The notes below the pieces were generated by a model. That model made no database searches and was not told the origin of the DNA. It worked only from the letters and a program-made list of their open reading frames with translations. A stretch of DNA of 64,000 nucleotides, from positions 1 through 64,000 of IMG/VR virus record IMGVR_UViG_3300021373_002437. One strand, written 5' to 3'. The DNA comes from a virus. The translations under genes were made by a program, and so were the position numbers. Within the stretch, counting starts at the first letter, position 1. Each line of letters starts with the position of its first letter. This document shows positions 3,300 to 26,622 of the stretch, in pieces.

Positions 3300-3332
3300 T
3301 GTAAGTGACTATGGTGTGTCATTGGTGATGTT

Positions 3333-4571: not shown

Positions 4572-4575
4572 GATT

Positions 4576-6883: not shown

Positions 6884-8306
6884 TCATTTAATAGAATATA
6901 GAAAACGAGTCCTTGATGCGAAGTCCCCGTCTTTCTGTGGTGCGAAATGGTATAATGCTACTACTTGGTTAGGTAGTGGAACTACTGCATCGTGCCACCA
7001 CCCGACTGCTCATAAAATACCTCTTGTGGAGCTAGAGGCTGATCATACTGCAATACACAACACGAAGCATAAGAAAGCAGTTAGAAAGATGATGCAAGAA
7101 GGCGAAAGGCCAAAGGAGTGTGAATATTGTTGGCGCATTGAGGATATGGGTAAGGATTCTGTTTCGGATAGAGTTTTCAAATCAGAAATCTACAGCGAAG
7201 AAGACCTTCAGAAAGCTTATGAAATGGATTGGAAAGATAGTGTTGATTTAAAGACTTTTGAAATTGCTTTTGATCGAACATGTAACCTAGCATGTTCTTA
7301 TTGCAACCCCTCCTTTTCTTCTACGTGGGCTAGGGACATTAAAAAACTGGGTCCATACCAGAATCTTTTATCTGATGGAGCGGGTGCGTTTGAACAAGAT
7401 GGTTCTTGGACTGAGCCTTATGGTAGAGACGAAGAGAACCCGTATATCACAGCATTTTGGAAGTGGTGGGATGATGGGTTGTCAGATAGTCTAGAAGAAT
7501 TACGTATTACTGGTGGTGAACCCCTAATGTCTGGTAACACTTGGAAGTTATTTGATTGGTTTGAACAACAAGATTCTGACATGAGGTTTGCAATCAATAC
7601 AAATTTCATGGCAAAGGACGAAATTGTTGATCGTTTGATTGAAAAATCTCACCACATAAAACATTTTGAGCTTTATACTAGTGCTGAGTGTTATGGCACC
7701 CAGCAAGAATTTTTACGTGATGGGTTTGAATGGGATACATGGTCGAAAAATATGGACCGATTTGCAGAAGAGGGTAATTATCATAGCATAAATATCATGA
7801 TGACGATCACTGCTTTGAGTGTGTTTTCTATTACAGAATTCTTAGACGAAGTTACAGATATGAAGCAGAGAAGTCGTGCTGGCAAACATCCTGTAATAAG
7901 CGTCAATATTTTGAGGTTCCCTAGCTTCCAAAGCGTTGTGACATTACCAGAACATATAAGAGCATTTTGTAGAAACGAGTTGTTTCTTTGGATTGAAGAG
8001 AATAAAAATTTGCCCTGTTGGTTAGATTTTGAAATCGCCAGCCTGCAAAGACTGGTCGATTATCTGTATTCATACGACTCTCCATTTGAGAAGGCTAGTG
8101 AGTTGGAGGTTCGACAACAAGACTTAAAATCTTTCTTTGATCAATACTGTGATCGTAGAGGTAAGGACATAAACGTATTTCCAACAATTTTTACCGAATG
8201 GTATAATTCTTTGGAAAGTGGGTATAAGAAAGCAGCTTTGAAGTCTGGAGATAATACTAGATTTTTGGATGATAATAGATTAATAGAACTGAGGGACATA
8301 TTATGA
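6876..8306 (+). CDS. Twitch-type radical SAM protein (SCHHP subgroup, 2)
   Basis: A 476-residue paralogue of the preceding protein. The start is the TTG at 6876, overlapping the previous stop by 8 bases; the next in-frame ATG would delete the N-terminal cluster ligands. Twitch ligands are C21 (PSFCGAKW), C40 (SCHHP), C82 and C85 (ERPKECEYCW). Radical SAM ligands are C136, C140 and C143 (RTCNLACSYC), followed by RITGGEPLMS. The C-terminal CDRRGKDINVFPTIF matches the DxRR...FP signature of the group. The region NILRFPSFQSVVTLPEH corresponds to NYLRFPPHLQVTILPRK in the first copy. Divergence between copies is large, so this is an old duplication and probably specialised in substrate. Confidence 0.88.
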   Translation: MSDHLIEYRKRVLDAKSPSFCGAKWYNATTWLGSGTTASCHHPTAHKIPLVELEADHTAIHNTKHKKAVRKMMQEGERPKECEYCWRIEDMGKDSVSDRVFKSEIYSEEDLQKAYEMDWKDSVDLKTFEIAFDRTCNLACSYCNPSFSSTWARDIKKLGPYQNLLSDGAGAFEQDGSWTEPYGRDEENPYITAFWKWWDDGLSDSLEELRITGGEPLMSGNTWKLFDWFEQQDSDMRFAINTNFMAKDEIVDRLIEKSHHIKHFELYTSAECYGTQQEFLRDGFEWDTWSKNMDRFAEEGNYHSINIMMTITALSVFSITEFLDEVTDMKQRSRAGKHPVISVNILRFPSFQSVVTLPEHIRAFCRNELFLWIEENKNLPCWLDFEIASLQRLVDYLYSYDSPFEKASELEVRQQDLKSFFDQYCDRRGKDINVFPTIFTEWYNSLESGYKKAALKSGDNTRFLDDNRLIELRDIL

Positions 8307-9361
8307 CAAAGACTGTTGTAATGACTTTACAAAATCCTCTTGATGAGAGTGATTTGTTGGAGATTGAATATGAAGTATTGGACACCACTATAGGTAACCA
8401 ATGGTTTGATCATTGCATCATGAATCTGAACAAACGACAAAGAGTTGAGAAAAATTTTTGTTGGTTGGGTTGGCCTGATCAAAACAGGACAGTTGAGTTT
8501 CTTGCAGAGCGACTAGAGCGTTGCGTTGATACTATAAATGAATTTGCGGATACTAATAATCCACATTGGAATGGATACCGTATAGAAAAGAGTTGGGAAG
8601 ATATTACCAGTGATGATGCCTTAAATCAACTTCATCACCATTTTGAAATTTTGATGGGACAGGTTTGGGATGTTGCAATCTATATGCGTTCTGCTGACCC
8701 AAAAACCTCCTATGCTATTCGGCAATTGAATAATTTAGTTCACGAACTACAAGCTAGGAAATATGCCAACAAATCTGGTATGACTGTTGTGAGTTATTTG
8801 GACCCGATTAGAGAAGAGTTTGACGAACAGCATTATGACAGCTTTTCTATAAACAGAAATTTTGGTGATATCTTCTTACATTACGCACAAACTGGAAAAA
8901 CACCAATAGAAGCATTTGAGGACAATGATGATTATGTGTTTAATAATAACATAAATGCATTGCGATACATGTCTGGTGAATTTAATATTTGGTGGAATGC
9001 TTCAACCTCTGAATCTGATGTAAATTCAACTAAAGAGAAACTTGGAGCATGGTTAAACGCCAGAGAAGTTATCATGCAAGAGCAAGATGATTTTTGTTAT
9101 TATGTTGACCCTGATGGTAATAAACAGGGTATCGGGTGGCTGACAGTAGCAAAGATAAAAAACCCTTTCGAAACAGAAGACGAATTGGTTGAAGAGGTTA
9201 ATAAGCGTCTTAATATATATAAGCTTGCCTGTTATATTGATGGTGAATTTGTTACTGAAATGCAGTGGGATTATAAGTGGTCTGATGAAGACTATATTGA
9301 AAATGAAGTAGAGTATTTGACTCCACTATTTCCATGCTCACAACCTAACGCTTTGGATTGA
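8303..9361 (+). CDS. Unrecognised family, paralogue C (radical SAM cassette)
   Basis: A 352-residue protein, the longest of three related copies. Its start overlaps the preceding radical SAM stop by ATGA. The shared pattern is clearest against 2463-3299: LNQLHHHFEILMG (near 114), LNNLVHELQ (near 146), VVSYLDPIR (near 162), DIFLHYAQTGKTPIEAFED (near 188), and YMSGEFNIWW (near 220). Its C-terminal ~110 residues, absent from the shortest copy, are acidic and contain YYVDPDGNKQGIGW. The His/Glu pairs on adjacent predicted helices could bind metal, but this is speculative. It sits between two SCHHP-subgroup radical SAM genes, strengthening the link between the two families. Confidence 0.75.
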   Translation: MTKTVVMTLQNPLDESDLLEIEYEVLDTTIGNQWFDHCIMNLNKRQRVEKNFCWLGWPDQNRTVEFLAERLERCVDTINEFADTNNPHWNGYRIEKSWEDITSDDALNQLHHHFEILMGQVWDVAIYMRSADPKTSYAIRQLNNLVHELQARKYANKSGMTVVSYLDPIREEFDEQHYDSFSINRNFGDIFLHYAQTGKTPIEAFEDNDDYVFNNNINALRYMSGEFNIWWNASTSESDVNSTKEKLGAWLNAREVIMQEQDDFCYYVDPDGNKQGIGWLTVAKIKNPFETEDELVEEVNKRLNIYKLACYIDGEFVTEMQWDYKWSDEDYIENEVEYLTPLFPCSQPNALD

Positions 9362-9362
9362 A

Positions 9363-10760
9363 ATGCCACATACATACGATTTAATAAAGGTTAAAGATAT
9401 AACGGAACAATTGAATGAAGTTGGTCCCGGTTTTTGTATGGCTAAGTGGTACCACATTAGCATGCATCTACATACGGGACAAAATCACAGTTGTTACCAC
9501 CCAGCCCCACATAAAATTCCATTGAAAGAAGCACAGGAGAACCCTAATGTACTCCACAATACCCCATATAAGAAACAGGTTCGAAAAGAAATGTTGTCTG
9601 GTGGTAGACCCTCAGAATGTTCTTATTGTTGGGATGTAGAAGACTTGCCCGGAGACCATATTTCTGATAGAATGTTAAGGTCTTCTGAAGAATGGTCTAT
9701 ACCTAAAATTGAAGAAACTTCAAAGATGACCGGGGATGAAGATGTTTATCCTGCATATCTAGAACTGAATTTTAGTAATCGCTGCCAATTTAAGTGTAGT
9801 TACTGCGCTCCTATGGCTAGTTCTACTTGGGTTAATGAAACGGATAAGTATGGTGATTGGCCTTTGGAAAACCCGATCAATGTTAGGCAGTACCAAAACA
9901 TATCATTCCAAAATGAGGGGACTAAACATGGAGAAGAAGATTCGAACCCATATATTAAAGTCTTTTGGGATTGGTTTCCAGAAGCATATCCTCATGTACA
10001 GACACTTAGATTCACTGGTGGCGAGCCTTTATTAAGCCCCAATGTTTTCAAGGTTCTTGATTATGTTTCAGAACACCCAAACCCAGAACTTAAATTTGCT
10101 GTAAACAGTAACATGTCAGTTCCTCAGAGAAACATAGAGCGGTTCATTAATGTCACTAATGATTTGGTGCAAAATAATAAAATCAAGGGGTATGGGGTAT
10201 TCACCAGTGTAGATACGTGGGGGGCACAAGCTGAATGGATACGTAATGGATTGAACATAGAGAAATACGAAAACAATCTTCATTACTACATGCAAAACTC
10301 CGCAACCCCATATATGAGTTTTATGGTCACGTTCTGTTTGCTGGCAATTCCTAGGTTCACGGAATTTTTGGATAAAGTATTGGAATTGAGGAAGCAGTAT
10401 AACGTTTGTAATGATCAGCGCCAAAGAATAAACTTTGATACTCCATACACAGTAGAACCACCACATTTAACCGCTAGAATTGCAGATGATTGGTTTGTGG
10501 AAAGATTAGATCACAACTGTCAATACATTTTAGACAGGGTTGATGACAATGATGTGAATGCGTTTTCCATGGTAGAATATGAAAAGCTTCATCGGGTTTT
10601 GGAGTGGGTGAAGAGAAGTAGATTTGAGGGCGATGAATTGGCAATGAACCGTAGAGACTTTGCTAAATTTGTCGATGAACATGACAGGAGACGGGGCACA
10701 GACTTTCATGCTGCATTCCCTGAACTTAGAGAATTTTATGAGATGTGTAGAAAATCATGA
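9363..10760 (+). CDS. Twitch-type radical SAM protein (SCHHP subgroup, 3)
   Basis: A 465-residue third member of the subgroup, one base after the preceding stop. The N-terminal auxiliary domain has C25 (GPGFCMAKW), C44 (SCYHP, one His replaced by Tyr), C86 and C89 (GRPSECSYCW). Core ligands are C141, C145 and C148 (NRCQFKCSYC), then LRFTGGEPLLS. The C-terminal signature is DEHDRRRGTDFHAAFPEL. In the second core region the protein reads NFDTPYTVEPPHLTARI, less like the LRFP strand of copies 1 and 2, so the substrate pocket may differ. Its end overlaps the next start as ATGA. Confidence 0.88.
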   Translation: MPHTYDLIKVKDITEQLNEVGPGFCMAKWYHISMHLHTGQNHSCYHPAPHKIPLKEAQENPNVLHNTPYKKQVRKEMLSGGRPSECSYCWDVEDLPGDHISDRMLRSSEEWSIPKIEETSKMTGDEDVYPAYLELNFSNRCQFKCSYCAPMASSTWVNETDKYGDWPLENPINVRQYQNISFQNEGTKHGEEDSNPYIKVFWDWFPEAYPHVQTLRFTGGEPLLSPNVFKVLDYVSEHPNPELKFAVNSNMSVPQRNIERFINVTNDLVQNNKIKGYGVFTSVDTWGAQAEWIRNGLNIEKYENNLHYYMQNSATPYMSFMVTFCLLAIPRFTEFLDKVLELRKQYNVCNDQRQRINFDTPYTVEPPHLTARIADDWFVERLDHNCQYILDRVDDNDVNAFSMVEYEKLHRVLEWVKRSRFEGDELAMNRRDFAKFVDEHDRRRGTDFHAAFPELREFYEMCRKS

Positions 10761-12064
10761 AAGATGAAAAAAATGAAATTATGTGCAAAACATTCACCGA
10801 TGATGTTCAGGAGTCATTTTGTGTACTTCCCTTTGTCCACACAAACCTGAACACTGAGGGAGATGTTTACCCCTGTTGTATTTCTTGGGACGCAGAGCGT
10901 TCAAATAAAATTGGTCTTTTAAAAGATAATACTTTAGAAGAATTATTCAACGATGATAAGCTACAACAACTTCGTCGCGACTTGATATCAGGAACGCGCC
11001 GCCCCGATGTTTGTGTTCGCTGTTACACTTCTGAAGACAATGGTTTTCCTGCTGGTAGACATGGCAACAATCGTGATCTGCAGCACATGATTCCTCAAAT
11101 ATTAGAGGACTATTCTGAAACCGGATATATGCCACCGAAAATAAAAAGCTGGGATATTCGTTATAGTAATTTATGTAATTTGAAATGTAGAAGTTGTGGT
11201 GGAATATACAGCACTACATGGTCAAAAGAAGATTCTGAGTTTTATCATGGGATGGAATACCGCGAGATAAAATCATATGAAGGAAAAGACCCTCTTGAGA
11301 ACCAATATGAACACGTAGAAAAAATATATTTTGCTGGTGGTGAGCCACTTATAATGCCAGAACATTTTTCAACCCTGAAGAAGTTGATTGAAATCGATAG
11401 AGCCAAGTACGTTAGATTAGTTTATAATACTAACATGACAAAACTCAATTATGATAGGAACTACTTACCAGATTTGTGGAAAGAATTTAAAGCAGTTTCA
11501 TTGGGGTTGAGTATAGATAATTTTGGGGATAGAGCAAACTACATACGTCATGGAAATATAAAATGGAACAAAATAGAAGATAATATTAAGAAAATGTATG
11601 AATATACAACGACTCCCGGTTCTAATATGGATTACTTTTTTTCACCAACTGTGAGTTTATTGAATGTGTATACTTTAACAGATTTGCATCGCTATTTATT
11701 TGAAAATGGTATGATGGTCCACCCAGACCAAATACTTCTCAACATTTTGTATCACCCACAGGAACTTTCTATCACCATACTCCCTGACCACATAAAGGAA
11801 GAAATATCTGGCAAAATTATTGCACATATAGCGTGGTTGAATTCCTTGGACGGTACTTATGGCAATGCCAAAGGGCAATTTGAAAGTCTATTGTCCTATA
11901 TACATGAGACAATACCGAATGTGGAAGAACATGTTGAACGTTTTGTGAAAAGAACCCAAGAGATTGACCACAGAAGAAATGAATGCTTCCCAGATACCTT
12001 TCCAGAATATGCAGAATGGTGGCAAACTATTACTAAGGACAAAATTTTCGCGGTAAACATATGA
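10757..12064 (+). CDS. Twitch-type radical SAM protein (PCC subgroup, 1)
   Basis: A 435-residue radical SAM protein with the canonical version of the N-terminal twitch domain: SFCVLPF (C22), VYPCCISW (C40/C41), a TLEELFNDDKLQQLRRDL helix and PDVCVRCYTSED (C86, C89). Radical SAM ligands are C140, C144 and C147 (NLCNLKCRSC), followed by YFAGGEPLIM. The C-terminus has EIDHRRNECFPDTFPEY. This Cys-Cys plus Cys-x-x-Cys arrangement is what SPASM/twitch domains use to hold an auxiliary [4Fe-4S] cluster. It differs from the SCHHP group in having a doublet of cysteines. It is coupled by ATGA overlaps on both sides. Confidence 0.9.
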   Translation: MKDEKNEIMCKTFTDDVQESFCVLPFVHTNLNTEGDVYPCCISWDAERSNKIGLLKDNTLEELFNDDKLQQLRRDLISGTRRPDVCVRCYTSEDNGFPAGRHGNNRDLQHMIPQILEDYSETGYMPPKIKSWDIRYSNLCNLKCRSCGGIYSTTWSKEDSEFYHGMEYREIKSYEGKDPLENQYEHVEKIYFAGGEPLIMPEHFSTLKKLIEIDRAKYVRLVYNTNMTKLNYDRNYLPDLWKEFKAVSLGLSIDNFGDRANYIRHGNIKWNKIEDNIKKMYEYTTTPGSNMDYFFSPTVSLLNVYTLTDLHRYLFENGMMVHPDQILLNILYHPQELSITILPDHIKEEISGKIIAHIAWLNSLDGTYGNAKGQFESLLSYIHETIPNVEEHVERFVKRTQEIDHRRNECFPDTFPEYAEWWQTITKDKIFAVNI

Positions 12065-13329
12065 AAGAACTGCCCAAAACTATATGTGCTCACCCGTGGC
12101 AACATTTACATAGTTGGCCTGATGGGAAGGCTATGTTGTGCTGTGTTGCCCATGGGGGAGATAAACACGGTGCTGTTGGTGATTTTTCGGTTAATTCATA
12201 CGAAGAAATTATGAACAGTGATAAAATGAATCAAATCCGAAAAGATTTCTTGAATGGTGAGAAACCCGTTGAGTGTAGTGCTTGTTGGAAAGCTGAAGAG
12301 TTGGGTAAAAGCAGTTTTAGGTTAGATATTGGTCTCAGCGATGAAGTAAGAGATTTGATGGAAAGAACCTCCGATAATGGAGAGCTTCCAGAAACAAAGA
12401 TGTATTACATGGATTACCGATTCAGCAATCTGTGTAACCTTGGTTGTCAAACTTGTGGTAGTCCACTTAGCAGCACAATAGCAAATAAGAGGGAGAATAA
12501 CGAGAGTGAAAATTCTATACTGAGAGACCGAGGGGTTTTATCTGAGAGGGGTACTGTTACATCATTTGTTTATGCCAGACCAGATTTCATGGAAGTTGAT
12601 GTTTATCCATATTTGGATGATTGTCGGAGTTTTTATTTTGCTGGTGGTGAACCGTTAATGCACCAAGAACATCTGGATATACTTAACTACCTAAACGACA
12701 ATAAATTATACAATAAGCACATAATGTATAGTACAAACCTGTCAATTTTATCATGGAAGGGTAACGACTTTATTGATATTTGGAAAAACTTTAGCAACTT
12801 GATGTTTTGGTGTAGTGTAGATGCACATGGCCCCGCATTAGAATATGTTAGGGAATATTCCAACCACGACACGATCTTTAAAAATTTGCAAAAGTTGTTA
12901 GATGCAAAAAAAGATCATCCCCAAATGAAGATAAATATTTGCTGTACCCACAGTGTATATAATGCATATTGTTTTCCAGAATTTATAGACTTTTTGTATG
13001 AGCAGGGATTTCTACAACTGCTGGATGATATTGAAATAAACTATGCTTTTGGAGATTTGAATTCTCCAGCAATACTTCCTAACTTCGCAAAAAAGGAACT
13101 AAAAGAGAAGAGGGCCCTTTGTAGGAACAATGAATCAATTCAATATGCAATGCAAAAATTTGATAAGTTTGAATATTACTATGACACAGTAGATTCTGTT
13201 ATAGACGAACCCAGTCAAAAAAGAGTCTGGGATGATCTGGTCTCAAAAAAATTGATAAAAGATATGAAAAAGCTTGAAAACAGCCTGCCTTGGTTGCACA
13301 GTGTTGTTGAGAGGTATAGAATTGTATGA
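12061..13329 (+). CDS. Twitch-type radical SAM protein (PCC subgroup, 2)
   Basis: A 422-residue protein. Twitch ligands are C9 (TICAHPW), C27/C28 (AMLCCVA), C72 and C75 (VECSACWKAEE). Core ligands are C125, C129 and C132 (NLCNLGCQTC) followed by SSTIANKR, then FYFAGGEPLM. Unlike the others the C-terminus lacks an obvious DxRR...FPE signature and ends SLPWLHSVVERY. Start and stop overlap neighbours by 4 bases (ATGA). The substrate is unknown; the operon context implies it acts on the same product as its five relatives. Confidence 0.88.
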   Translation: MKELPKTICAHPWQHLHSWPDGKAMLCCVAHGGDKHGAVGDFSVNSYEEIMNSDKMNQIRKDFLNGEKPVECSACWKAEELGKSSFRLDIGLSDEVRDLMERTSDNGELPETKMYYMDYRFSNLCNLGCQTCGSPLSSTIANKRENNESENSILRDRGVLSERGTVTSFVYARPDFMEVDVYPYLDDCRSFYFAGGEPLMHQEHLDILNYLNDNKLYNKHIMYSTNLSILSWKGNDFIDIWKNFSNLMFWCSVDAHGPALEYVREYSNHDTIFKNLQKLLDAKKDHPQMKINICCTHSVYNAYCFPEFIDFLYEQGFLQLLDDIEINYAFGDLNSPAILPNFAKKELKEKRALCRNNESIQYAMQKFDKFEYYYDTVDSVIDEPSQKRVWDDLVSKKLIKDMKKLENSLPWLHSVVERYRIV

Positions 13330-14531
13330 CACATTGCATTAACGTATATAAAGGACTTAGATATACCAATAGTGGGGATGTTCAGTTTTGTTGTAAGAGT
13401 GATATGTTTCTAGATGATAAGGATGGGAACAAGGCACAAATTTATACTCACACCCTAGAAGAAGCCCAAAATGGAAATCTTGCTGTCGAAATTAGAGAAG
13501 ATTTGGAGCGGGGGGTAAAACATAAGAATTGCCAGAAATGTTGGGATGAAGAAGAAGCTGGCATTTCTAGTAAAAGAATTTTGGACAACCAAAGAGCTAT
13601 TCGATATTGGGGAGAAAGGTATTTAAATGATAAAGTGGTATCCCCAGAAATAGTTGAGTTTAATTTTGGAACTATTTGCAACCTCAAATGTAGAATATGT
13701 GGTCCGTGGTCGAGCAGTAGATGGAATTCTGAATTTTATGAGTTGCTTGCCGGGGAGGATTATCCAAAAGAACATCACGACAACCAAGTTTCTTTGTGGC
13801 AAGGTAATTGGGAAGATGATAGTCCTGCGTGGGACAATATTTCTAAAAGCATCGGCAACCTAAGACACATTGATTTCTATGGTGGCGAGCCTTTTTTGGT
13901 AGACCGCAATTGGGAAATATTGAAGCAGAATGTTGAAAATGGTAATTCCTCAAACCAATATATCCATTTCAATACGAATGGAACTCGTTATGAGGAAGAG
14001 CATATAGAAATTTTAAAGAGTTATCGTAGAATAAATATAAGTTTATCTATTGACGATATGGGGGAGCGATTTAATTATCAGAGGCATCCGGCTAACTGGG
14101 ATATAGTAAATGAAAACTTAAAGAAATTTAAAGAGCTTGAAGAAGAATTCCCCCAGTTTGAAGTTATGGTCTGTGTGACTGTTAATAATTTAAATTTGTG
14201 GTATATACCGGAATTGGTGAATTATTTTGATAGTATGGGAATACCCTATTATATAAACTATTTACACTACCCCTCCCACTATAACATATCAAATTTAAAA
14301 CAAGATGTTAAGCCTTTGGTGGCGCAAAAATATGATGAAGCCATGATGGAGATGCAATGTAATTATAGTAAAGATAATTTGAAAGCAATAATAAATTATA
14401 TGAATGTTAATATAGGCACCGCTGAACGGTGGAATGAATTTTTAAATAAAACTGAATTCAGTGATAAATATAGAAAACAAAATTTTAAAAGTGTTTTTCC
14501 TGAGTGGGCCGATGTGTTGGGGATTGTGTAA
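13326..14531 (+). CDS. Twitch-type radical SAM protein (PCC subgroup, 3)
   Basis: A 401-residue protein. Twitch ligands are C4, C22/C23 (VQFCCKSD), C69 and C72 (KNCQKCWDEEEAG). Core ligands are C118, C122 and C125 (TICNLKCRIC) followed by GPWSSSRWN, a run typical of this family, and then DFYGGEPFLV. The C-terminus has KQNFKSVFPEWADVLG, a degenerate form of the FPE signature. It is the last of the radical SAM series. The stop is followed directly by the TTG start of the SDR gene, continuing the operon. Confidence 0.88.
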   Translation: MTHCINVYKGLRYTNSGDVQFCCKSDMFLDDKDGNKAQIYTHTLEEAQNGNLAVEIREDLERGVKHKNCQKCWDEEEAGISSKRILDNQRAIRYWGERYLNDKVVSPEIVEFNFGTICNLKCRICGPWSSSRWNSEFYELLAGEDYPKEHHDNQVSLWQGNWEDDSPAWDNISKSIGNLRHIDFYGGEPFLVDRNWEILKQNVENGNSSNQYIHFNTNGTRYEEEHIEILKSYRRINISLSIDDMGERFNYQRHPANWDIVNENLKKFKELEEEFPQFEVMVCVTVNNLNLWYIPELVNYFDSMGIPYYINYLHYPSHYNISNLKQDVKPLVAQKYDEAMMEMQCNYSKDNLKAIINYMNVNIGTAERWNEFLNKTEFSDKYRKQNFKSVFPEWADVLGIV

Positions 14532-15203
14532 TTGAATATAGTTATAGTTGGTGCTGGGAATGACCCGCAAAGATTTGGGGGATATTTCAAACAAGTTGCA
14601 GAAGAAGCGGAACATACTGTTTATACGTTTTCTTATAGACTTGAAACTACCGCTCTTGAGGACGTTCCAGTTATTTTTGAGTTGGATGTTTTAGATCGTA
14701 TACCAGAGGGAGAAACAATAGACTTGTTTCTATACAATTCCATTGGTGGGTTTTATCCGGGTCAACCAAAACATTATTCTTCATTGCACGATGTTAATAT
14801 GTACGAGTGGCAGAAATCTATTCTCATAAACGCAGCAATTCCACACAAACTTTCTACAATGGCTTTAAGAAAAATGGATGAAAACAGTTCTATTGTGTTT
14901 ATGACTTCTTCTGCCTCTTATTTGATAAACAGAGACAATTATTTGGAAATGGCTGGTTACTTTGGCACTAAAGGTGCTATGAATCAACTTATGCGAGCCA
15001 TGGCAGAATATAATGATAAGGGGACTACAGTATATACCATGGCACCGCACATACCATACGAAAATCCAGAACAGGCACGACTCATATTGAAAAAATTGAC
15101 CGATTACATTTTATCTATGAATAAAGAAAGTAATGGAAAAATACTACAGTGTTATCCACCAGATGGTAGAATCTGGCCCCACGAGGGAGGACAACATCCA
15201 TGA
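14532..15203 (+). CDS. Short-chain dehydrogenase/reductase-like protein
   Basis: A 223-residue protein with the SDR fold signature: an N-terminal NAD(P) strand IVIVGAG with G7-x-G9, a VFMTSSAS strand carrying the catalytic Ser, and YFGTKGAMNQL, which is the YxxxK active-site motif. It is at the short end of the family. The start is TTG directly after the previous TAA. It is followed with ATGA overlap by a 42-codon peptide. It could reduce or oxidise a sugar or a radical SAM product; the substrate cannot be inferred. Confidence 0.8.
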   Translation: MNIVIVGAGNDPQRFGGYFKQVAEEAEHTVYTFSYRLETTALEDVPVIFELDVLDRIPEGETIDLFLYNSIGGFYPGQPKHYSSLHDVNMYEWQKSILINAAIPHKLSTMALRKMDENSSIVFMTSSASYLINRDNYLEMAGYFGTKGAMNQLMRAMAEYNDKGTTVYTMAPHIPYENPEQARLILKKLTDYILSMNKESNGKILQCYPPDGRIWPHEGGQHP

Positions 15204-15328
15204 AAGACGAAAAAGATGTAGGAGAAAATGAAAAAGATCAGAAAGAAGTTGAAGAAAAAAAATCTGATGAAACATTGAAAGATAAAATTGATAAGTTGAA
15301 AAAAGAAGACCCGTTTATATATGACTAA
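15200..15328 (+). CDS. Highly charged 42-aa peptide in the radical SAM operon
   Basis: A 42-codon frame, ATG at 15200 and TAA at 15326-15328, overlapping the SDR stop at its start (ATGA) and the oxygenase start at its end. It is almost entirely Lys, Asp and Glu with no hydrophobic stretch, probably one charged helix, and ends DPFIYD. Tight packing with overlaps on both sides argues that it is translated. In an operon of radical SAM enzymes such a peptide could be a RiPP precursor (charged leader, short C-terminal core) or a small assembly factor. It contains no Cys, Ser/Thr-rich or Gly-rich core, so the precursor idea is only a hypothesis. Confidence 0.6.
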   Translation: MKDEKDVGENEKDQKEVEEKKSDETLKDKIDKLKKEDPFIYD

Positions 15329-15926
15329 TTTAAAGATAACAAAACCATTCGAGGGGTGGAAATACCACGGTGATGTTAATAAGGTTCCTTGTTGGTTCTT
15401 TGAGGGTGTTGATGTACCTGACATAGATTTCGATTCGTTAAAATGGAAGTCAAAACAGGGAGATTTTCTACAGGGGTCCGAAACCTTTGCATTGAGGTAT
15501 GAGGTCGAGGATATGTCAGACGCTTTGCAGAGAACATTAAGAGATTTGACTGTTTCTGTTATAAGCGAGATTCGTGAAAATCATTCTGAAAACATGGGAA
15601 TAGATATTTTGTATCCAATTTTTCCATGGAATCTCACTGCTAAGGTTGCTCTAAAAAAAGACATGAAAAGATTTCATATGGGAAAACATCTGGATAATAG
15701 AAATTCTAGATTTACTTTCATTATGAATTTAACTGACAATCTTGATGGCACTACTTTTCACACTGAAAATTTTGCAGAGCCATATAATGAATATGACCCT
15801 GTGTTTGGTCCCACCAAAAAAGGCAGTGGTGTTTTCTATTTCAACCATCACACATTAATACATGATATTGGACCAATAAAGTCAGAGGAACGATACATAC
15901 TTTTTCATCAACAATATATGAATTAA
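15321..15926 (+). CDS. 2-oxoglutarate/Fe(II) oxygenase-like protein
   Basis: A 201-residue protein with a plausible double-stranded beta-helix iron site: H123-x-D125 (FHMGKHLDN), distal H181 (TLIHDIGPI) and an Arg 10 residues later (R191 in EERYILF) that would bind 2-oxoglutarate. GSGVFYFNHHTLIHDI is typical of the C-terminal strands of this superfamily. These enzymes hydroxylate proteins, nucleic acids or small molecules. It is encoded with overlap on the 42-codon peptide and just before the carbamoyltransferase, suggesting a hydroxylation that creates the hydroxyl group to be carbamoylated. That order of steps is inference. Confidence 0.7.
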   Translation: MTNLKITKPFEGWKYHGDVNKVPCWFFEGVDVPDIDFDSLKWKSKQGDFLQGSETFALRYEVEDMSDALQRTLRDLTVSVISEIRENHSENMGIDILYPIFPWNLTAKVALKKDMKRFHMGKHLDNRNSRFTFIMNLTDNLDGTTFHTENFAEPYNEYDPVFGPTKKGSGVFYFNHHTLIHDIGPIKSEERYILFHQQYMN

Positions 15927-15927
15927 A

Positions 15928-17361
15928 ATGATAGCTTGGGGAGTTAGTGCCGGATTTCATGATGCTGCTTTGTCCGTGGTGGACAGCAGGCAGATTCTTT
16001 TTGCCTCGCATTCGGAGCGTTACAGTAGAGAGAAAAACGATAAGAACCTACACTCGGACCTGATACAAGACGCATTACAGTTCGGTTATCCCGAAATTAT
16101 ATTCTGGTATGAAAACCCTCTTTTAAAAGCCACCAGAAGAATCTATGCTGGACAAAGTAACTGGTACACAAATCCAAAGAAGTATTTTACTGAGGCTGGC
16201 TTTGACCCCTGTTGTCATATAGAATGGGGAAACCACCATGAGAGTCATATGGCTGCTGGTCACTACACAAGCCCGTTTGGTTCTTCCGCGACTCTAGTGA
16301 TTGATGCTATTGGGGAGTGGACCACAACATCCATCTGGAAAAACAATAAGAAGATTTGGAGTGCAAACTATCCACGTTCATTGGGACTGCTTTATTCTGC
16401 CTTCACAGATAGAGTTGGACTAAAGCCCAATGAGGATGAATATATCTTGATGGGTATGGCAGCATACGGTGAGCCTAATTATCAGGACGAGATTTATGAG
16501 TTGTCCAGAACAAGAAACTTCCACCGGGGAGCGAGAGACTTCCGACCAAATCTTACCTCAGAACAAGACCTGTTTGATATTGCATGCAGCGTACAGAAAG
16601 TATATGAATCATACTTTCATGCTTTGTTGTATAAGGCTAGAGATTTGACGGGAGAAAAGAATCTTGTGTTCATGGGTGGTTGTGCTTTGAATTGTTTAGC
16701 TAACAGGATGATTCCAAGGTATTTTAAAAAATATTGGATTATGCCCAGCCCCGGTGATGCAGGTTCTTCTCTTGGAGCGGTTCTTGCAAAGACCCGAAGA
16801 TATGTTAAATTTAAATCCCCTTACCTTGGGTACAATATTGAAGGCAAGTACCCAGTCAATGCTGCACTTAAAGAGTTGATGGAAACTGGTATGGTGGGCG
16901 TGGCGAATGGTCGCGCTGAGTTTGGTCCTAGGGCATTAGGTAACAGGAGCTTACTTGCAGACCCTCGTGGTCAAGAAATGAAGGACAAGGTGAATGCAAT
17001 CAAGCAGAGGCAAGAGTTTCGTCCCTTTGCCCCAGTGATACCTCAAGAAAAGGTTTCTGAGTATTTTGATGTACCCGAAGATTTTGAATCCCCCTATATG
17101 CAGGAGGTTGTTCGCTGTAAATACCCAGACGAATTCCCAGCCATTGTACATAAAGACGGTACCAGCCGTGTACAAACTGTAACCAAAAAGCAAAATTCTG
17201 GGTTATATAGATTGCTTACTAAGTGGGAACAGGAGACTGGTTGCCCCATGCTTCTGAATACTAGTCTAAATATTAAGGGACAACCAATTGTCAACAATGA
17301 AAAGCATGCGCGTGACTTTGAGCATAAATATAACGTGAGAGTTTTTACACAAGAGACCTAA
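15928..17361 (+). CDS. Carbamoyltransferase (NodU/CmcH/TobZ family)
   Basis: A 477-residue O-carbamoyltransferase. The N-terminal ASKHA-like domain starts WGVSAGFHDAALSVVD and continues with SHSERYSREKND (the usual ExRxSRxK motif) and MAAYGEP. FMGGCALNCLANR is the conserved Gly-Gly-x-Ala-x-Asn segment. The C-terminal domain has EFGPRALGNRSLLADPR followed by RQEFRPFAPVIPQE, both hallmarks of the family. It is shorter than NodU or TobZ (about 560-600). Family members transfer a carbamoyl group from carbamoyl phosphate, via carbamoyl-AMP, to a hydroxyl on sugars or antibiotics; some viral relatives are reported to act on hydroxymethylcytosine in DNA. Either sugar or base could be the acceptor here. 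It ends the accessory operon. Confidence 0.9.
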   Translation: MIAWGVSAGFHDAALSVVDSRQILFASHSERYSREKNDKNLHSDLIQDALQFGYPEIIFWYENPLLKATRRIYAGQSNWYTNPKKYFTEAGFDPCCHIEWGNHHESHMAAGHYTSPFGSSATLVIDAIGEWTTTSIWKNNKKIWSANYPRSLGLLYSAFTDRVGLKPNEDEYILMGMAAYGEPNYQDEIYELSRTRNFHRGARDFRPNLTSEQDLFDIACSVQKVYESYFHALLYKARDLTGEKNLVFMGGCALNCLANRMIPRYFKKYWIMPSPGDAGSSLGAVLAKTRRYVKFKSPYLGYNIEGKYPVNAALKELMETGMVGVANGRAEFGPRALGNRSLLADPRGQEMKDKVNAIKQRQEFRPFAPVIPQEKVSEYFDVPEDFESPYMQEVVRCKYPDEFPAIVHKDGTSRVQTVTKKQNSGLYRLLTKWEQETGCPMLLNTSLNIKGQPIVNNEKHARDFEHKYNVRVFTQET

Positions 17362-18375: not shown

Positions 18376-19125
18376 ATGCCTAAAAAGAGTTTACACCTAG
18401 TACAGACTGAACAAGAAAAACCAATATCCAATAGTCTAAAGATGAAGTTGGATGATATGATAACCGTACAAGCCAAGACCGAAGCACAGGGCCAGTTTAT
18501 GTCTCAGTATAGACACAAACCGGCCTTTTTGCTTCATGGGTGTGCGGGAACTGGAAAGACTTTTATCGCGCTTTACCGAGCACTAGAAGAGGTTCTAGAA
18601 AAGACAAGCACATACGATAAGGTCATTGTAGTTCGTTCAGCAGTACCTTCAAGAGAAGTTGGTCATCTACCGGGTGACATTGATGATAAAACGGAAATCT
18701 ACAGCTTGCCATATCAGGCAATGTGTGAAGAATTTTTTCCAAAGAAACAACAGCCCTATAAGCGCCTAGTCGAACAAAAACATCTGGTGTTTATGAGTAC
18801 TTCTTATGTTAGAGGTATCACTTGGGACCATGCTATTGTAATAGTAGATGAGTGCCAAAATATGAACGACATGGAGTTCAATTCAATCATGACTCGTGTC
18901 GGGGTAAATACTAAAATCATATTCTGTGGAGATTTCCGCCAGACTGATCTTGCAAGAAAGTACGACACATCGGGACTTAAGAAATTCATCTACACTGCAG
19001 AGGAAATGAAATCCTTTTGTACAGTTGAATTTGGCACCGAAGATATAGTAAGATCAGAATTGGTGCGGGAATACATAGAAGCCAGAATGCGAGTAGAGGA
19101 CTCGTATGTAGAAAATCCCATGTAA
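18376..19125 (+). CDS. phoH: PhoH-like P-loop ATPase
   Basis: A 249-residue PhoH family protein. Walker A is HGCAGTGKT (G55-T62), Walker B is IVIVDECQN (near 156-163), and the sensor-like region is IIFCGDFRQTDL. VRSAVPSREVGHLPGD is the typical post-Walker A segment. phoH is very common in marine myoviruses; its biochemical role (RNA-related ATPase or helicase) in phage infection is not settled. Here it is followed by a strong host-type promoter. Confidence 0.92.
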   Translation: MPKKSLHLVQTEQEKPISNSLKMKLDDMITVQAKTEAQGQFMSQYRHKPAFLLHGCAGTGKTFIALYRALEEVLEKTSTYDKVIVVRSAVPSREVGHLPGDIDDKTEIYSLPYQAMCEEFFPKKQQPYKRLVEQKHLVFMSTSYVRGITWDHAIVIVDECQNMNDMEFNSIMTRVGVNTKIIFCGDFRQTDLARKYDTSGLKKFIYTAEEMKSFCTVEFGTEDIVRSELVREYIEARMRVEDSYVENPM

Positions 19126-21926: not shown

Positions 21927-22439
21927 ATGTCACAACCATATTTCTTAGGAGACCCGCATTGGGGCCATAGAAGTATTCTCAAGTACCGGTCTCAGTTCTC
22001 CAGTATTGAAGAACACGATAACACTATCCTTGAGAATATTCTTAGTGTATCGGACAAGAGAGCAGTACTGTACTTGATGGGTGACTGTTTTTTTGACATG
22101 GAGGCTATTCGCTTCCTAGAACAAATTAGACCAAGATTCATGCATGTTCATTGGATTTTGGGTAATCACGATACTGATAGTAAACTCAGGCAGCAAGTTT
22201 TCAGGGAGGTCATTAAGCGTGATCTTGTTGATACCGTGCATAGTCTGAAGAAGTACCATGAATTCTGGCTTTCTCACGTTCCCATGCATGAGAGTGAATT
22301 GAGAGGTCACTTGAATATCCATGGACACACTCATGCCGAATTTGTTGACGATAGCAGGTATATCCCTGTAAGTTTGGAGCATATCGAATATAAGCCGATT
22401 TCTCTACAGCAGATCAGGGACTTGACAAATCGGGAATAG
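21927..22439 (+). CDS. Calcineurin-like metallophosphoesterase
   Basis: A 170-residue protein with all five metallophosphoesterase motifs: D9-x-H11 (GDPHWGH), G-D53 (MGDCF), G-N80-H81-D82, H117 (LSHVP) and G-H134-x-H136 (IHGHTH). Length and motif spacing match the short phage and YfcE-like members that act as phosphodiesterases. Phage substrate unknown. The downstream end contains the promoter for the tmRNA region. Confidence 0.9.
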   Translation: MSQPYFLGDPHWGHRSILKYRSQFSSIEEHDNTILENILSVSDKRAVLYLMGDCFFDMEAIRFLEQIRPRFMHVHWILGNHDTDSKLRQQVFREVIKRDLVDTVHSLKKYHEFWLSHVPMHESELRGHLNIHGHTHAEFVDDSRYIPVSLEHIEYKPISLQQIRDLTNRE

Positions 22440-22455
22440 TTTGCTATTATAAATA
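22422..22455 (+). promoter_or_regulatory. Overlapping early (sigma70-type) and late (TATAAATA) promoters
   Basis: TTGACA at 22422-22427, 17-base spacer, TATTAT at 22445-22450; an exact late box TATAAATA overlaps at 22448-22455. Both would start transcription near 22457-22462. They would drive the 33-aa peptide, the structured junction and the tmRNA in both early and late phases of infection. The -35 box lies inside the end of the phosphoesterase gene. Confidence 0.75.
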
Positions 22456-22476
22456 GTACAAGTAATGGAGGTAAGT

Positions 22477-22578
22477 ATGAGCGATAGACAAGAATTACTG
22501 CCAGTTGTTACACGTATTATAGGCTTGACAGTTGTCATTATTGCAGTATCATATGTAATAGGTAACTGGATAACTTAA
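22477..22578 (+). CDS. 33-aa membrane peptide
   Basis: A 34-codon frame (ATG 22477, TAA 22576-22578) with a good ribosome binding site (ATGGAGGT, 6-7 bases upstream) and its own dual promoter. After a polar N-terminus (MSDRQELLP) the rest is one hydrophobic helix (VTRIIGLTVVIIAVSYVIG). It ends two bases before the long RNA stem at 22581. A toxin-like or membrane regulatory peptide is possible; nothing in the sequence identifies it. Confidence 0.6.
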   Translation: MSDRQELLPVVTRIIGLTVVIIAVSYVIGNWIT

Positions 22579-22580
22579 AC

Positions 22581-22681
22581 ATTGGCCCCCCTTAAAGAGC
22601 ATTGAGCAGTGTGATGACGGTCACAAGGAATGCAGACAGTAGATATGAGCGATCTACCAGTGCTTTTTAAAGGGGGCCAAT
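22581..22681 (+). ncRNA. Structured RNA element: 23-position stem enclosing two hairpins
   Basis: Positions 22581-22603 pair with 22659-22681 over 23 positions, with one C-A mismatch (22591/22671) and two G-U pairs. The enclosed 55 bases hold two further hairpins: 22610-22614 with 22621-22625 (TGTGA/TCACA) and 22639-22644 with 22652-22657 (GTAGAT/ATCTAC, 7-base loop). The whole folds as a three-way junction. It lies directly between the 33-aa gene and the tmRNA acceptor piece, so it is either a processing signal or 5' domain of the tmRNA precursor, or an independent small RNA. It is not a normal terminator because no T-run follows. Confidence 0.65.
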
Positions 22682-22682
22682 A

Positions 22683-22746
22683 AAGAATTCGATGACGCAG
22701 ATCGAAGAACGGACGGACGCGGGTTCAACTCCCGCCGCCTCCACCA
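22683..22746 (+). ncRNA. ssrA: tmRNA acceptor piece
   Basis: Ends in a T arm of five pairs with loop TTCAACT, acceptor strand CGCCTCC and encoded ACCA, nearly identical to the 3' end known from bacterial tmRNAs (GGACGCGGGTTCAACTCCCG). Upstream, TTCGAT (22688-22693) and ATCGAA (22701-22706) form a small hairpin. The 5' boundary is uncertain because the long stem of the preceding element ends at 22681 and may be removed during processing. Confidence 0.85.
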
Positions 22747-22870
22747 AAAGCACACTACATATGGGCGACTGTTAGCTGGACTACATATTGGGTAGTAGAG
22801 TTACCGAGGAAAGAAACCTATTTCTTTAAGCTTGCTTGTTAATGGACAGTGCAAGTAGTGTGTTTTTGAT
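22747..22870 (+). other. tmRNA intervening segment removed on maturation
   Basis: The 124 bases between the encoded ACCA and the G-run of the coding piece. Its ends are complementary: 22746-22758 pairs with 22855-22867 over 13 positions with one G-U, stacking close to the acceptor helix. That presents the pre-tmRNA as one long hairpin suited for excision by RNase P and 3' processing enzymes. No coding frame is evident. Confidence 0.75.
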
Positions 22871-23066
22871 GGGGGCGATACGGATTCGACGGACGGTGAT
22901 AGAGAAGCTGAGAATAGGTCAATGTGAAAGACCTTAAGGACTGGGAGTTCCCGGTTAAAGAAGCAAAAACTATAAACGCAAACGATGACGTTTATCATCA
23001 AGATATTTTGCTAGCTGCTTAAGTCTTGACGGGGTGCGGTGGGAGCCTTGTTAACCAATTCCCACA
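22871..23066 (+). ncRNA. ssrA: tmRNA coding piece
   Basis: Begins GGGGGCGATACGGATTCGAC, the conserved tmRNA 5' end with seven bases for the acceptor helix. Hairpins AGGTC/GACCT (22916-22934) and CTGGGA/TCCCGG (22941-22954) lie where pseudoknot 1 is expected. The tag frame follows, then GTGGGA/TCCCAC (23039-23044 with 23060-23065) near the 3' end. The exact 3' end is not defined by the sequence alone. Confidence 0.82.
22978..23022 (+). other. tmRNA proteolysis-tag reading frame
   Basis: Codons from GCA at 22978 give the tag ANDDVYHQDILLAA, then TAA. The first residues AND and last AA match the usual tmRNA tag pattern recognised by ClpXP-type proteases, while the middle DVYHQDIL and the LLAA end are unlike the common ALAA ending. 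An in-frame GCA also occurs at 22963; the 22978 codon is preferred because the conserved A/T-rich motif lies immediately before it. The appended peptide in the cell would be preceded by the alanine carried by tmRNA itself. Confidence 0.82.
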
Positions 23067-23071
23067 ATTTT
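23039..23071 (+). terminator. Possible terminator at the end of the tmRNA
   Basis: GTGGGA (23039-23044) pairs with TCCCAC (23060-23065), with a 15-base loop, followed by AATTTTT. The stem is short and the loop large, so it may instead be the last structural helix of the coding piece. It could do both. Confidence 0.4.
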
Positions 23072-23097
23072 TACATATAATAATAAGAGAAATCTCC

Positions 23098-23859
23098 ATG
23101 AGTACATTTTTATTTGGTGATGATTGGAAGCTAAACTTAGCTAGAAACAAACTTCGCAACGCAACCTATGTTCATAAGTTTGGAGCGAACCCTACACCGA
23201 CAAATGGAGTTGAAGAATCGGTTTGGGATGGTTCTACTTTGTATCCTTGGTCAACTTGGGATGCGGGTGCTGATAATGTATATTTGAAATCGTCGGATGC
23301 CGGTGATGTTTCAATCACTGTGTTTATTCAGGGTCTTGATGAAAACTACGAACTACAGACAGAAATAGTTACACTTGATGCTACAGACCCTTCAGCAACA
23401 GCAGTAGCTTCTGCCAATACTTACATCAGACTTTTCAGAATGTATAATTCTAGCAGCACCCAAGAGGCGGGTAATATTACAGCACATTATGGGTCAGGTG
23501 CAGGGACTGTGGTGGCACAAATCACTGCAGGTGAGGGGCAAACTCTCATGTCAATTTACACCATTCCTGCTGGGCATATTGGTCTTCTTTTAGGCTGGGA
23601 TTTTTCTGGTAGTGCAAACTCTGCAATGACTTCTAGGTTGATGGTAAGACCTGAAAATAATGTTTTTCGTAATCAGCTTCAGGCTGCATCCTATGGTAGT
23701 AATTATAATAAAGATTTTTCTGTTCCGCTCGGGTTTACTGAGAAGTCTGATATTGATGTTCGGGTGACTGCTGGCACGGGTTCTGCTACGATCACATCTA
23801 CTTTTGGGATGGTCATAGTGAAAGATAATGAGTTTAATCTTTGGTCGCAAGGTTACTGA
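23098..23859 (+). CDS. Putative virion protein of unknown role
   Basis: A 253-residue protein. The ATG at 23098 is chosen; the longer frame to 23026 runs back into the tmRNA and is rejected. The protein begins MSTFLFGDDWKLNLARNKLRN, is rich in Ser, Thr, Gly and aromatic residues, and shows an alternating pattern (ADNVYLKSSDAGDVSITVFIQG) typical of beta-rich capsid or tail decoration proteins. No cysteine or catalytic motif is visible. A structural call is inferred from composition only. Confidence 0.55.
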   Translation: MSTFLFGDDWKLNLARNKLRNATYVHKFGANPTPTNGVEESVWDGSTLYPWSTWDAGADNVYLKSSDAGDVSITVFIQGLDENYELQTEIVTLDATDPSATAVASANTYIRLFRMYNSSSTQEAGNITAHYGSGAGTVVAQITAGEGQTLMSIYTIPAGHIGLLLGWDFSGSANSAMTSRLMVRPENNVFRNQLQAASYGSNYNKDFSVPLGFTEKSDIDVRVTAGTGSATITSTFGMVIVKDNEFNLWSQGY

Positions 23860-24612: not shown

Positions 24613-24903
24613 GTGTTAGAAGTACTCGACTTTGATTCAATGAACCAAAAACAAAAACCATCAGACGTATTCCTAATAACAAAAGAATTTAATACTACAA
24701 CTCAGTTCTCTCAGTACATTGAAGAACAGGCAGTTAGGAGTGATTCTACTTGTATGGATATTCTGATTGATTATTGTGCGAAAAATGAAATTGAAATTGA
24801 TAGTGTTGGTAAGCTACTCAGCCCAACACTCAAGGACAAACTGGAAGCAGAAGCCCAGAATCTAAACTTACTTAAGGCGAAAACAACTAAATTACCTTTT
24901 TAA
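24613..24903 (+). CDS. gp33: gp33-like late transcription co-activator
   Basis: A 96-residue acidic protein with a GTG start preceded by AAGGAG. It resembles the T4 gp33 family: a helical middle with CMDILIDYCAKNEIEIDSVGKLL and a C-terminal end KTTKLPF. In T4, gp33 bridges the sliding clamp gp45 and host RNA polymerase carrying gp55, enabling transcription from TATAAATA promoters. Its place just before gp59 and gp32 is the expected order. The match is by pattern, and sequence conservation in this family is low. Confidence 0.75.
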   Translation: MLEVLDFDSMNQKQKPSDVFLITKEFNTTTQFSQYIEEQAVRSDSTCMDILIDYCAKNEIEIDSVGKLLSPTLKDKLEAEAQNLNLLKAKTTKLPF

Positions 24904-24905
24904 TT

Positions 24906-25493
24906 ATGGAACCATTTGAAGTTTACAAACTTTACATGGCACTGAAACTACACTTTACCACAGACACATATGACATTACCGAATACAAAGGTGCAGTTCG
25001 TGCCAAGAAAGAAACCTTCCTCAAGAGAAAAGACCTTACCTCAATCAGAAAGTTAGCCAGAGATTACAAGCGAAAGGAAATAATAGATTTGCTTGTCGCT
25101 AACTTTGTGACCGGTGATAAATGGGGAGGATTGTTTGATCAGTCTTGTGTGGACAACTATAAAAAGTTCTTGACAAGACGCAAGCAAATGTTGTATAATT
25201 TAAATGCAGACTTAGATTTGATTCTCTTCCGCATGGAGAAGGATGGAATTGAGTCAGTACTTAAAGATGAGGGACACCCGCTAATTTTCAGGATGTACAT
25301 GGCGGGTGATATAAAGATTGAATCCCTTGTTATCATTGAAAAGCTTTTTCCTTTCATCGATGCTTATGCAAATGACTTTGTTCTAGAGAGTATATGTCGT
25401 TTGATTAATAAGTACAAGCCCTTTGTCAGATTTGATAAAGATGATGTTAAACAAAGATATTCAGGTAAAATACAGCAATGTCTAAATCAGTGA
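24906..25493 (+). CDS. gp59: gp59-like loader of the replicative helicase
   Basis: A 195-residue basic, all-helical protein beginning MEPFEVYKLYMALKLHF, close to the T4 gp59 N-terminus pattern. NYKKFLTRRKQMLYNL and the late KYKPFVRFDKDDVKQRY fit the two-domain HMG-like/helical fold of gp59, which loads gp41 on gp32-covered forks. Length is close to T4's 217. It overlaps the next small gene and lies before gp32 as in T4-like phages. A consensus promoter is embedded at 25170-25199. Confidence 0.85.
   Translation: MEPFEVYKLYMALKLHFTTDTYDITEYKGAVRAKKETFLKRKDLTSIRKLARDYKRKEIIDLLVANFVTGDKWGGLFDQSCVDNYKKFLTRRKQMLYNLNADLDLILFRMEKDGIESVLKDEGHPLIFRMYMAGDIKIESLVIIEKLFPFIDAYANDFVLESICRLINKYKPFVRFDKDDVKQRYSGKIQQCLNQ
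25170..25199 (+). promoter_or_regulatory. Perfect-consensus sigma70-type promoter inside gp59
   Basis: TTGACA at 25170-25175 and TATAAT at 25194-25199, both exact, with an 18-base spacer, inside the gp59 coding sequence. Expected start near 25206. It would supply extra transcripts of the downstream small gene and gp32 independent of the upstream genes. Both hexamers being perfect by chance is unlikely, though the coding context constrains the bases. Confidence 0.65.
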
Positions 25494-25710: not shown

Positions 25711-26622
25711 ATGTCTTTTAATTCACTATCCGAGTTACGTAGTAATAGTAACATTTCATCCCTTCTCGCGGAAGTAGAGAAGTCCGAGAAAACCCAGTAC
25801 GACAATAACGGTGACAAGATTTGGAAGCCGACTGCAGATGCATCCGGTAGTGGTTCTGCCACAATCCGATTCCTACCAGCCCCACGAGGCGAAGACCTTC
25901 CATGGGTAAAAATGTTTTCACATGGTTTCCAAGGTCGAACCGGTCTTTGGTACATTGAAAACTCACTAACTACGCTTGGTCAACCAGACCCTGTTTCAGA
26001 GTTTAATTCAGAGCTTTGGAAGAACGGTACTGAACAAGATAAGGATGTTGTACGAAAGCAGAAACGAAAGCTTGATTTCTATGCTAACATTCTTGTGATC
26101 GATGACCCCAAGAACCCTGAGAACAATGGCAAGGTTTTCTTGTACAAATTTGGCAAGTCTATCTTTAACATCATTACTGATGCAATGGACCCAGAGTTCG
26201 AAGATGAGACACCAATCGACCCATTTAACTTTTGGGAGGGTGCAGCCTTTCGTCTTAAGTTCCGTCAAGTGGATGGTTATCGCAAGTATGACAAGTCTAG
26301 CTTTGACAGCCCTTCACCGATTTCTGATAACGACGAAGCTATTGAGGCAATTTGGAATCAACAGCATTCCCTTGCCGAGATTGTTGGGGCTGACAAGTTC
26401 AAGCCTTACGAAACTTTGAAGAAGCGTTTTTATGACGTTATTGGTAAGGGTGCCCGAGTTGGTACTGCAGAGAGTGTTTCTGAGATCACTGGTGATGCAG
26501 CAGATGATAACTTTGTTGCAGATGCGGTTGCTCAAACAGCACCACCTGCGAGCGAAGCGCCACCCGTAACGGACGATGAGGATACAATGGCATACTTTGC
26601 CTCACTTGCTGATGAAGATTAG
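25711..26622 (+). CDS. gp32: gp32 single-stranded DNA-binding protein
   Basis: A 303-residue protein with the T4 gp32 layout: a basic N-terminal cooperativity segment (residues 1-25), an OB-fold core with KIWKPTADASGSGSATIRFLPA and a GLWYIENSLTTLG strand, and a long acidic tail ending TDDEDTMAYFASLADED that recruits gp59 and other replication proteins. T4 gp32 is 301 residues. The expected Cys3-His zinc site of T4 is not apparent, as I recall for marine relatives. It is followed by a strong hairpin terminator. Confidence 0.93.
   Translation: MSFNSLSELRSNSNISSLLAEVEKSEKTQYDNNGDKIWKPTADASGSGSATIRFLPAPRGEDLPWVKMFSHGFQGRTGLWYIENSLTTLGQPDPVSEFNSELWKNGTEQDKDVVRKQKRKLDFYANILVIDDPKNPENNGKVFLYKFGKSIFNIITDAMDPEFEDETPIDPFNFWEGAAFRLKFRQVDGYRKYDKSSFDSPSPISDNDEAIEAIWNQQHSLAEIVGADKFKPYETLKKRFYDVIGKGARVGTAESVSEITGDAADDNFVADAVAQTAPPASEAPPVTDDEDTMAYFASLADED

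What the first reader, a model, noticed from the sequence alone, without database searches (positions are those of the whole stretch)
22683..23066. Phage-encoded circularly permuted tmRNA with an unusual tag
A complete tmRNA is present in permuted order. The tRNA-like 3' end (T arm, CGCCTCC, ACCA at 22743-22746) lies upstream of the 5' end (GGGGGCG... at 22871). The seven-pair acceptor helix, the conserved CGGATTCGACGG and a 14-residue tag frame (ANDDVYHQDILLAA, stop TAA) are all visible. Permuted tmRNAs are established in alphaproteobacteria and a few other lineages; one in a lytic phage block with its own early and late promoters is striking. The phage could rescue ribosomes during host shut-off, or mark host or phage proteins with a tag ending LLAA rather than the common ALAA, which might change protease choice.
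Basis: partly seen in the sequence, partly recalled or inferred. Interest (0 to 1): 0.92.

Follow-up and report, generated by a model that had tools for sequence, protein, structure and literature searches.

The report
Phage-encoded two-piece ribosome-rescue RNA (tmRNA)
A T4-like virus of bacteria carries its own two-piece copy of the RNA that frees stuck ribosomes; the gene is real and conserved in related marine phages, but this kind of phage gene has been described before.

Summary
A circularly permuted (two-piece) tmRNA gene lies at about 22686-23066 (Rfam RF04321, 94.7 bits against a cut-off of 47; ARAGORN also calls it). The acceptor helix has 7 of 7 pairs including G3·U70, the T arm 5 of 5, and the tag is ANDDVYHQDILLAA. 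The genome is a 96-kb record of a T4-like myophage without SmpB. The type is known. Methylophilales phage Melnitz has a permuted ssrA in the same order (PhoH – ssrA – gp33 – gp59 – gp32), and its authors listed 53 phage two-piece tmRNAs. I found about 26 relatives in IMG/VR, mostly 1.7-4.6 kb upstream of gp32. They show compensatory changes in the acceptor stem, a P2 helix in one register, a covarying 10-14-bp stem around the excised segment when that is long, and often a composite sigma-70/T4-late promoter. The LLAA tag end is not special: LAA is kept and the residue before it varies (A/S/Q/K/L). Peculiar to this phage: its composite promoter sits about 226 nt further upstream, behind a 33-aa ORF and a strong 101-nt hairpin (z -7.4), and P2 is four G-C pairs around a tandem G·A. 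Expression, two mature pieces and function are inferred.

The parts
22422..22455 (+). Composite promoter: sigma-70-like TTGACA-N17-TATTAT overlapping T4-type late element TATAAATA (22448-22455)
   Evidence: in many relatives the same composite lies at -93 to -100 from the discriminator base
22477..22578 (+). 33-aa ORF MSDRQELLPVVTRIIGLTVVIIAVSYVIGNWIT, with GGAGG upstream; putative membrane peptide, no family match
22581..22681 (+). Strong three-way-junction hairpin (-47.1 kcal/mol for 22578-22684), found only in this phage; possible 5' processing or insulation element
   Evidence: z -7.39; no Rfam match; no homologue in fetched loci or by apical-loop scans
22686..22746 (+). tmRNA acceptor (3') piece: local hairpin TTCGAT/ATCGAA, P2 strand 22710-22715, T arm 22719-22735, acceptor strand 22736-22742, A73 22743, CCA 22744-22746
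22747..22870 (+). Intervening segment (124 nt), closed by stem 22747-22758/22855-22866, then leader UGAU (22867-22870) before G1
   Evidence: 13 pairs, none of 500 shuffles equals it; stem of the same position but different sequence in the other long-segment family members
22871..23066 (+). tmRNA coding (5') piece: acceptor strand 22871-22877, GGATTCGAC region, P2 strand 22890-22895, tag frame, 3' pseudoknot/hairpin
22978..23022 (+). Tag reading frame ANDDVYHQDILLAA plus stop TAA; resume codon GCA
23030..23065 (+). 3' structure: CGGGG (23030-23034) can pair with CCTTG (23046-23050), and stem GTGGGA (23039-23044)/TCCCAC (23060-23065)
   Evidence: sequence reading; similar CGGGG...CCTTG layout in several relatives; not tested by covariation count
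24613..24903 (+). gp33-like late-promoter transcription regulator, part of the conserved neighbourhood
   Evidence: phrog_254, 4.6e-19
24906..25493 (+). gp59 helicase loader, part of the conserved neighbourhood
25711..26622 (+). gp32 single-strand DNA-binding protein, part of the conserved neighbourhood

Best explanation
This is a working two-piece (circularly permuted) ssrA gene of a T4-like phage, orthologous by position to ssrA of phage Melnitz. A transcript from the overlapping early/late promoter folds so that CCA and G1 are brought together across an excision hairpin. Host tRNA-processing enzymes cut before G1 (after UGAU) and after CCA, remove the 124-nt segment, and leave two RNAs held by the acceptor helix and P2. 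Host AlaRS charges the RNA through G3-U70 and host SmpB escorts it to stalled ribosomes. The 14-residue LAA-ending tag marks the stalled product for host proteases, which keeps ribosomes and amino acids available during infection. Shown by sequence: gene, structure, tag, conservation, neighbourhood and promoter motifs. Inferred: transcription, processing, charging, tagging and benefit.
For: Model and ARAGORN calls; compensatory acceptor changes with invariant G3-U70; P2 in the same register as relatives, mean 6.1 own versus 3.9 cross-paired base pairs across the family, the window's duplex at -6.2 kcal/mol against -5.2 to -8.4 in seven relatives tested; excision stem at the same place with different sequence in the long-segment members; relatives over the cut-off in 8 of 50, 9 of 50 and 10 of 50 phage records, most at the same place upstream of gp32; same order in Melnitz; composite promoter directly upstream in many relatives; T4-like genes in the record.
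Against: No expression data. No SmpB in the 96-kb record, so it must rely on the host. This gene's P2 is only four G-C pairs plus a tandem G-A mismatch, with no clear outer helix. It scores below the alpha, beta and cyano model cut-offs. The host is unknown.
Confidence: 0.85

Rival explanations
1. The RNA acts mainly as a decoy or inhibitor of host trans-translation, by titrating SmpB, rather than as a tagging tmRNA, as reported for a molecule like the tag-less tRNA-like domain of mycobacteriophage DS6A.
For: DS6A precedent in the literature (PMC4131195); no phage SmpB.
Against: The tag frame, resume region and 3' structure are kept in nearly all relatives examined, which a decoy would not need.
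Confidence: 0.08
2. A decaying copy that no longer works in this phage, although relatives' copies do.
For: Weak P2 with a tandem G-A mismatch and no outer helix; promoter displaced by an ORF and hairpin.
Against: Acceptor, T arm, G3-U70, tag frame, excision stem and UGAU are all intact; the P2 duplex energy is within the family range.
Confidence: 0.08
3. The RF00023 match 22672-22746 (GGGGGCC...CCACCA) is a second, tag-less one-piece tRNA-like RNA competing with the permuted form.
For: Local model match of 43 bits, just below the cut-off of 47.
Against: GGGGGCC gives only six acceptor pairs, belongs to the upstream hairpin arm, and is absent from relatives, which keep the TTCGATGA-like element without it.
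Confidence: 0.03

Closest known systems
ssrA of Methylophilales phage Melnitz (MZ577097; PMC9004378)
   Same: Permuted tmRNA, T4-like phage, order PhoH-ssrA-gp33-gp59-gp32, 142-nt intervening segment with closing stem and UGAU, composite TTGACA-N17-TATAAATA promoter
   Different: Melnitz tag is ANDNYVPVDYALAA; its authors report a glutamine riboswitch at the gene; its promoter is directly upstream. The window has a 33-aa ORF and hairpin between promoter and tmRNA, tag ANDDVYHQDILLAA, and no riboswitch match
Rfam RF04321 tmRNA_permuted (bacterial alpha, beta and cyano two-piece tmRNAs)
   Same: Full-length model match, tRNA-like domain in permuted order, tag frame
   Different: Below the cut-offs of the three lineage models; long intervening segment
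One-piece phage tmRNAs (Mycobacterium phage Bxz1 group, phage G) and tag-less DS6A (PMC4131195)
   Same: Phage-borne ssrA
   Different: Gene is not permuted, or lacks the tag

Membership tests
Permuted (two-piece) tmRNA | 3' acceptor piece encoded upstream of 5' coding piece, full match to RF04321 above cut-off | tested here: met
   94.7 bits, cut-off 47
Permuted (two-piece) tmRNA | 7-bp acceptor helix between the pieces, with alanine identity pair G3-U70 | tested here: met
Permuted (two-piece) tmRNA | Helix P2 joining the pieces | tested here: met
   CGGACG/CGGACG in the family register, four G-C pairs plus tandem G-A, -6.2 kcal/mol; the weakest continuous helix of the 25 members scored, so met only marginally
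Permuted (two-piece) tmRNA | Tag reading frame with stop | tested here: met
Permuted (two-piece) tmRNA | Transcript cut into two mature RNAs | not testable with these tools
   needs RNA data
Alpha/beta/cyano tmRNA lineages | Score above the lineage model's cut-off | tested here: not met
   38.8/50, 39.6/84, 20.9/70
Melnitz-type phage ssrA | Position PhoH - ssrA - gp33 - gp59 - gp32 in a T4-like genome | tested here: met
Melnitz-type phage ssrA | Glutamine riboswitch at the gene (reported for Melnitz; the paper itself says it is not a defining feature) | tested here: not met
   No glutamine riboswitch match in 22440-23110 even at E 10, nor in the whole window at gathering threshold

The most novel reading that the evidence does not exclude
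A conserved clade of marine T4-like phages makes its own two-piece tmRNA throughout infection from an overlapping host-sigma/phage-late promoter and a precursor whose excision hairpin presents both cleavage sites together. In this phage a 33-aa ORF and a strong hairpin have been inserted between promoter and tmRNA, adding a processing or coupling step.
Probability: 0.4. Interest if true: 0.5.

Novelty: new member of a known kind. Interest (0 to 1): 0.36.

Why it matters
It shows that phage two-piece tmRNA is not a sporadic capture: it is kept at one place in many T4-like marine phages with compensatory changes, so it is probably under selection. That makes the old question of why phages carry ssrA testable in an isolate with the same arrangement (Melnitz on its methylotroph host). 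The conserved excision stem and the UGAU leader are concrete predictions about how permuted tmRNA precursors are cut.

Tried and rejected
(1) Second, one-piece tRNA-like RNA starting at GGGGGCC 22672: rejected, no support in relatives. (2) Loss of P2: first suspected from mismatches in the RF04321 alignment, withdrawn after finding CGGACG/CGGACG in register with a tandem G-A. (3) Longer P2 with the upstream hairpin (9 bp 22579-22587/22917-22925): by a rough estimate about one such helix is expected by chance, so not used. (4) Homologues of the upstream hairpin: none; 19 hits of its 16-base apical core share no flanks with the window. (5) Relatives of the downstream gene 23098-23859: ARAGORN finds no tmRNA in these loci; the gene sits in other neighbourhoods there. 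(6) Exact 5' tRNA-like segment in bacterial genomes: two MAGs only, uninformative on the host. (7) Tag-pattern scan of viral contigs: none.

Full report
Observation. The tmRNA is real. RF04321 (tmRNA_permuted) matches 22686-23022 end to end at 94.7 bits, cut-off 47, and ARAGORN reports a permuted tmRNA with tag ANDDVYHQDILLAA. The general model RF00023 sees the 3' and 5' halves separately, below its cut-off. The alpha, beta and cyano models all find the place but stay below their cut-offs.

The genome. The window is part of a 95,980-base IMG/VR virus record. It encodes T4-type gp17; gp20, prohead protease, UvsW and UvsY; gp32, gp59 and a gp33-like late regulator; and tail and baseplate proteins. 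No SmpB was found; the record may be incomplete. TATAAATA, the T4 late element, occurs 25 times on the + strand against about 3 expected from dinucleotide frequencies.

Prior knowledge. PMC9004378 describes phage Melnitz with a two-piece ssrA, says that of 133 unique phage tmRNA structures 53 were called two-piece, 50 of them from marine or aquatic phages, and proposes roles in maintaining the translation machinery or recycling host protein. In the Melnitz record the order is PhoH..., ssrA, late-transcription coactivator, gp59..., gp32. The window has PhoH 18376-19125, tmRNA 22686-23066, gp33-like 24613-24903, gp59 24906-25493, gp32 25711-26622. So this is the positional orthologue of a published gene.

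Relatives. Phages reached through the baseplate wedge, portal, gp32 and 23098-23859 proteins were searched whole with RF04321: matches above the cut-off in 8 of 50, 9 of 50 and 10 of 50 records. From the coordinates, those reached through gp32 mostly have the tmRNA about 1.7-4.6 kb upstream of gp32 on the same strand; the window has 2.6 kb. Of the 20 closest gp32 relatives, 13 of those searched had at least 3 kb of upstream sequence, and 12 of the 13 carry it; the exception is L210. Records are fragments, so absence elsewhere is not informative.

Structure. In the 25 family members scored, the acceptor helix has 7 of 7 pairs; pairs 4-69, 5-68 and 6-67 change on both sides, and G3·U70 never changes. 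The T arm has five pairs in each IMG/VR member tested. An inner P2 helix starts at the GGAC/UCGAC junction in most: own partners give a mean of 6.1 contiguous pairs, partners swapped between members 3.9. The window's P2 is CGGACG (22710-22715) with CGGACG (22890-22895): four G-C pairs around a tandem G·A, in the same register, -6.2 kcal/mol, within the range of relatives.

Intervening segment. Members fall into two classes, short segments (8-32 nt) and long ones (60-142 nt). All 11 long ones, Melnitz included, can form a 10-14-bp stem that begins at or within one base of CCA and ends four to six bases before G1, with the leader ending UGAU; each stem is unusual against shuffles (p 0 to 0.014), and its sequence differs widely between members. 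This is the layout expected of a precursor that presents both cleavage sites together. That RNase P cuts after UGAU is inference.

Promoter. In the L113 group, L114, L115, L117, L118, L119, L289, L290 and Melnitz a composite element, TTGAC followed after about 17 nt by a TATAAATA-like box, lies about 93-100 nt from the discriminator base (L113 itself has a duplicated box), which would put the start site near the 5' end of the acceptor piece; most contain TATAAATA. The window has the same composite (TTGACA-N17-TATTATAAATA) but at -322, followed by a 33-aa ORF and a 101-nt hairpin of -47 kcal/mol, z -7.4. I read this as an insertion between promoter and tmRNA; the long stem could be an RNase III site that makes the 5' end of the acceptor piece. 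That is inference: neither part has a relative in what I searched.

Tag. Tags in the family include ANDDYFTQDLKLAA (L112, closest in form), ANDDVYQLAA (L117), ANDEVFALAA, ANDEVFSLAA, ANDDVYALAA and ANDNFAFEDYALAA. LAA is kept in every member with a readable tag (the tag of L300 is unclear); the residue before it varies. LAA is the usual C-terminal motif (PMC9382460). From my own knowledge, E. coli ClpX reads the last three residues while ClpA also contacts the preceding one, so LLAA should keep ClpX recognition; nothing here indicates a new protease choice.

Verdict. A real, conserved, probably functional phage two-piece tmRNA; a new member of a known kind, with interesting precursor and promoter anatomy.

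Noticed in passing
window 22581-22681: Strong three-way-junction hairpin between a 33-aa ORF and the tmRNA; not in Rfam, not in relatives.
   Followed up: partly
window 22610-22625: TGTGATGACGGTCACA inside the hairpin matches the CRP-site form TGTGA-N6-TCACA; the same 16-mer also stands in A+T-rich sequence of some unrelated viral contigs (L312, L315, L324). Probably chance or an RNA stem here.
   Followed up: partly
window 570-17361: Block of probable sugar/surface-modification genes: radical SAM with B12 domain, UDP-glucose/GDP-mannose dehydrogenase, carbamoyltransferase.
   Followed up: no
L003:12187-12699 and L003:5088-5828 (rest of the record): Peptide deformylase and fatty acid desaturase genes carried by the phage.
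   Followed up: no
L303 (Stenotrophomonas phage Marzo) 3952-4326; L304 (Brevundimonas phage Bajun) 1450-1882: ARAGORN calls permuted tmRNAs also in isolate phages of Stenotrophomonas and Brevundimonas, beside tRNA genes.
   Followed up: partly
L300 (246-kb viral record): Permuted tmRNA with an 8-nt intervening segment, no encoded CCA and an unclear tag end, next to a tRNA cluster.
   Followed up: no
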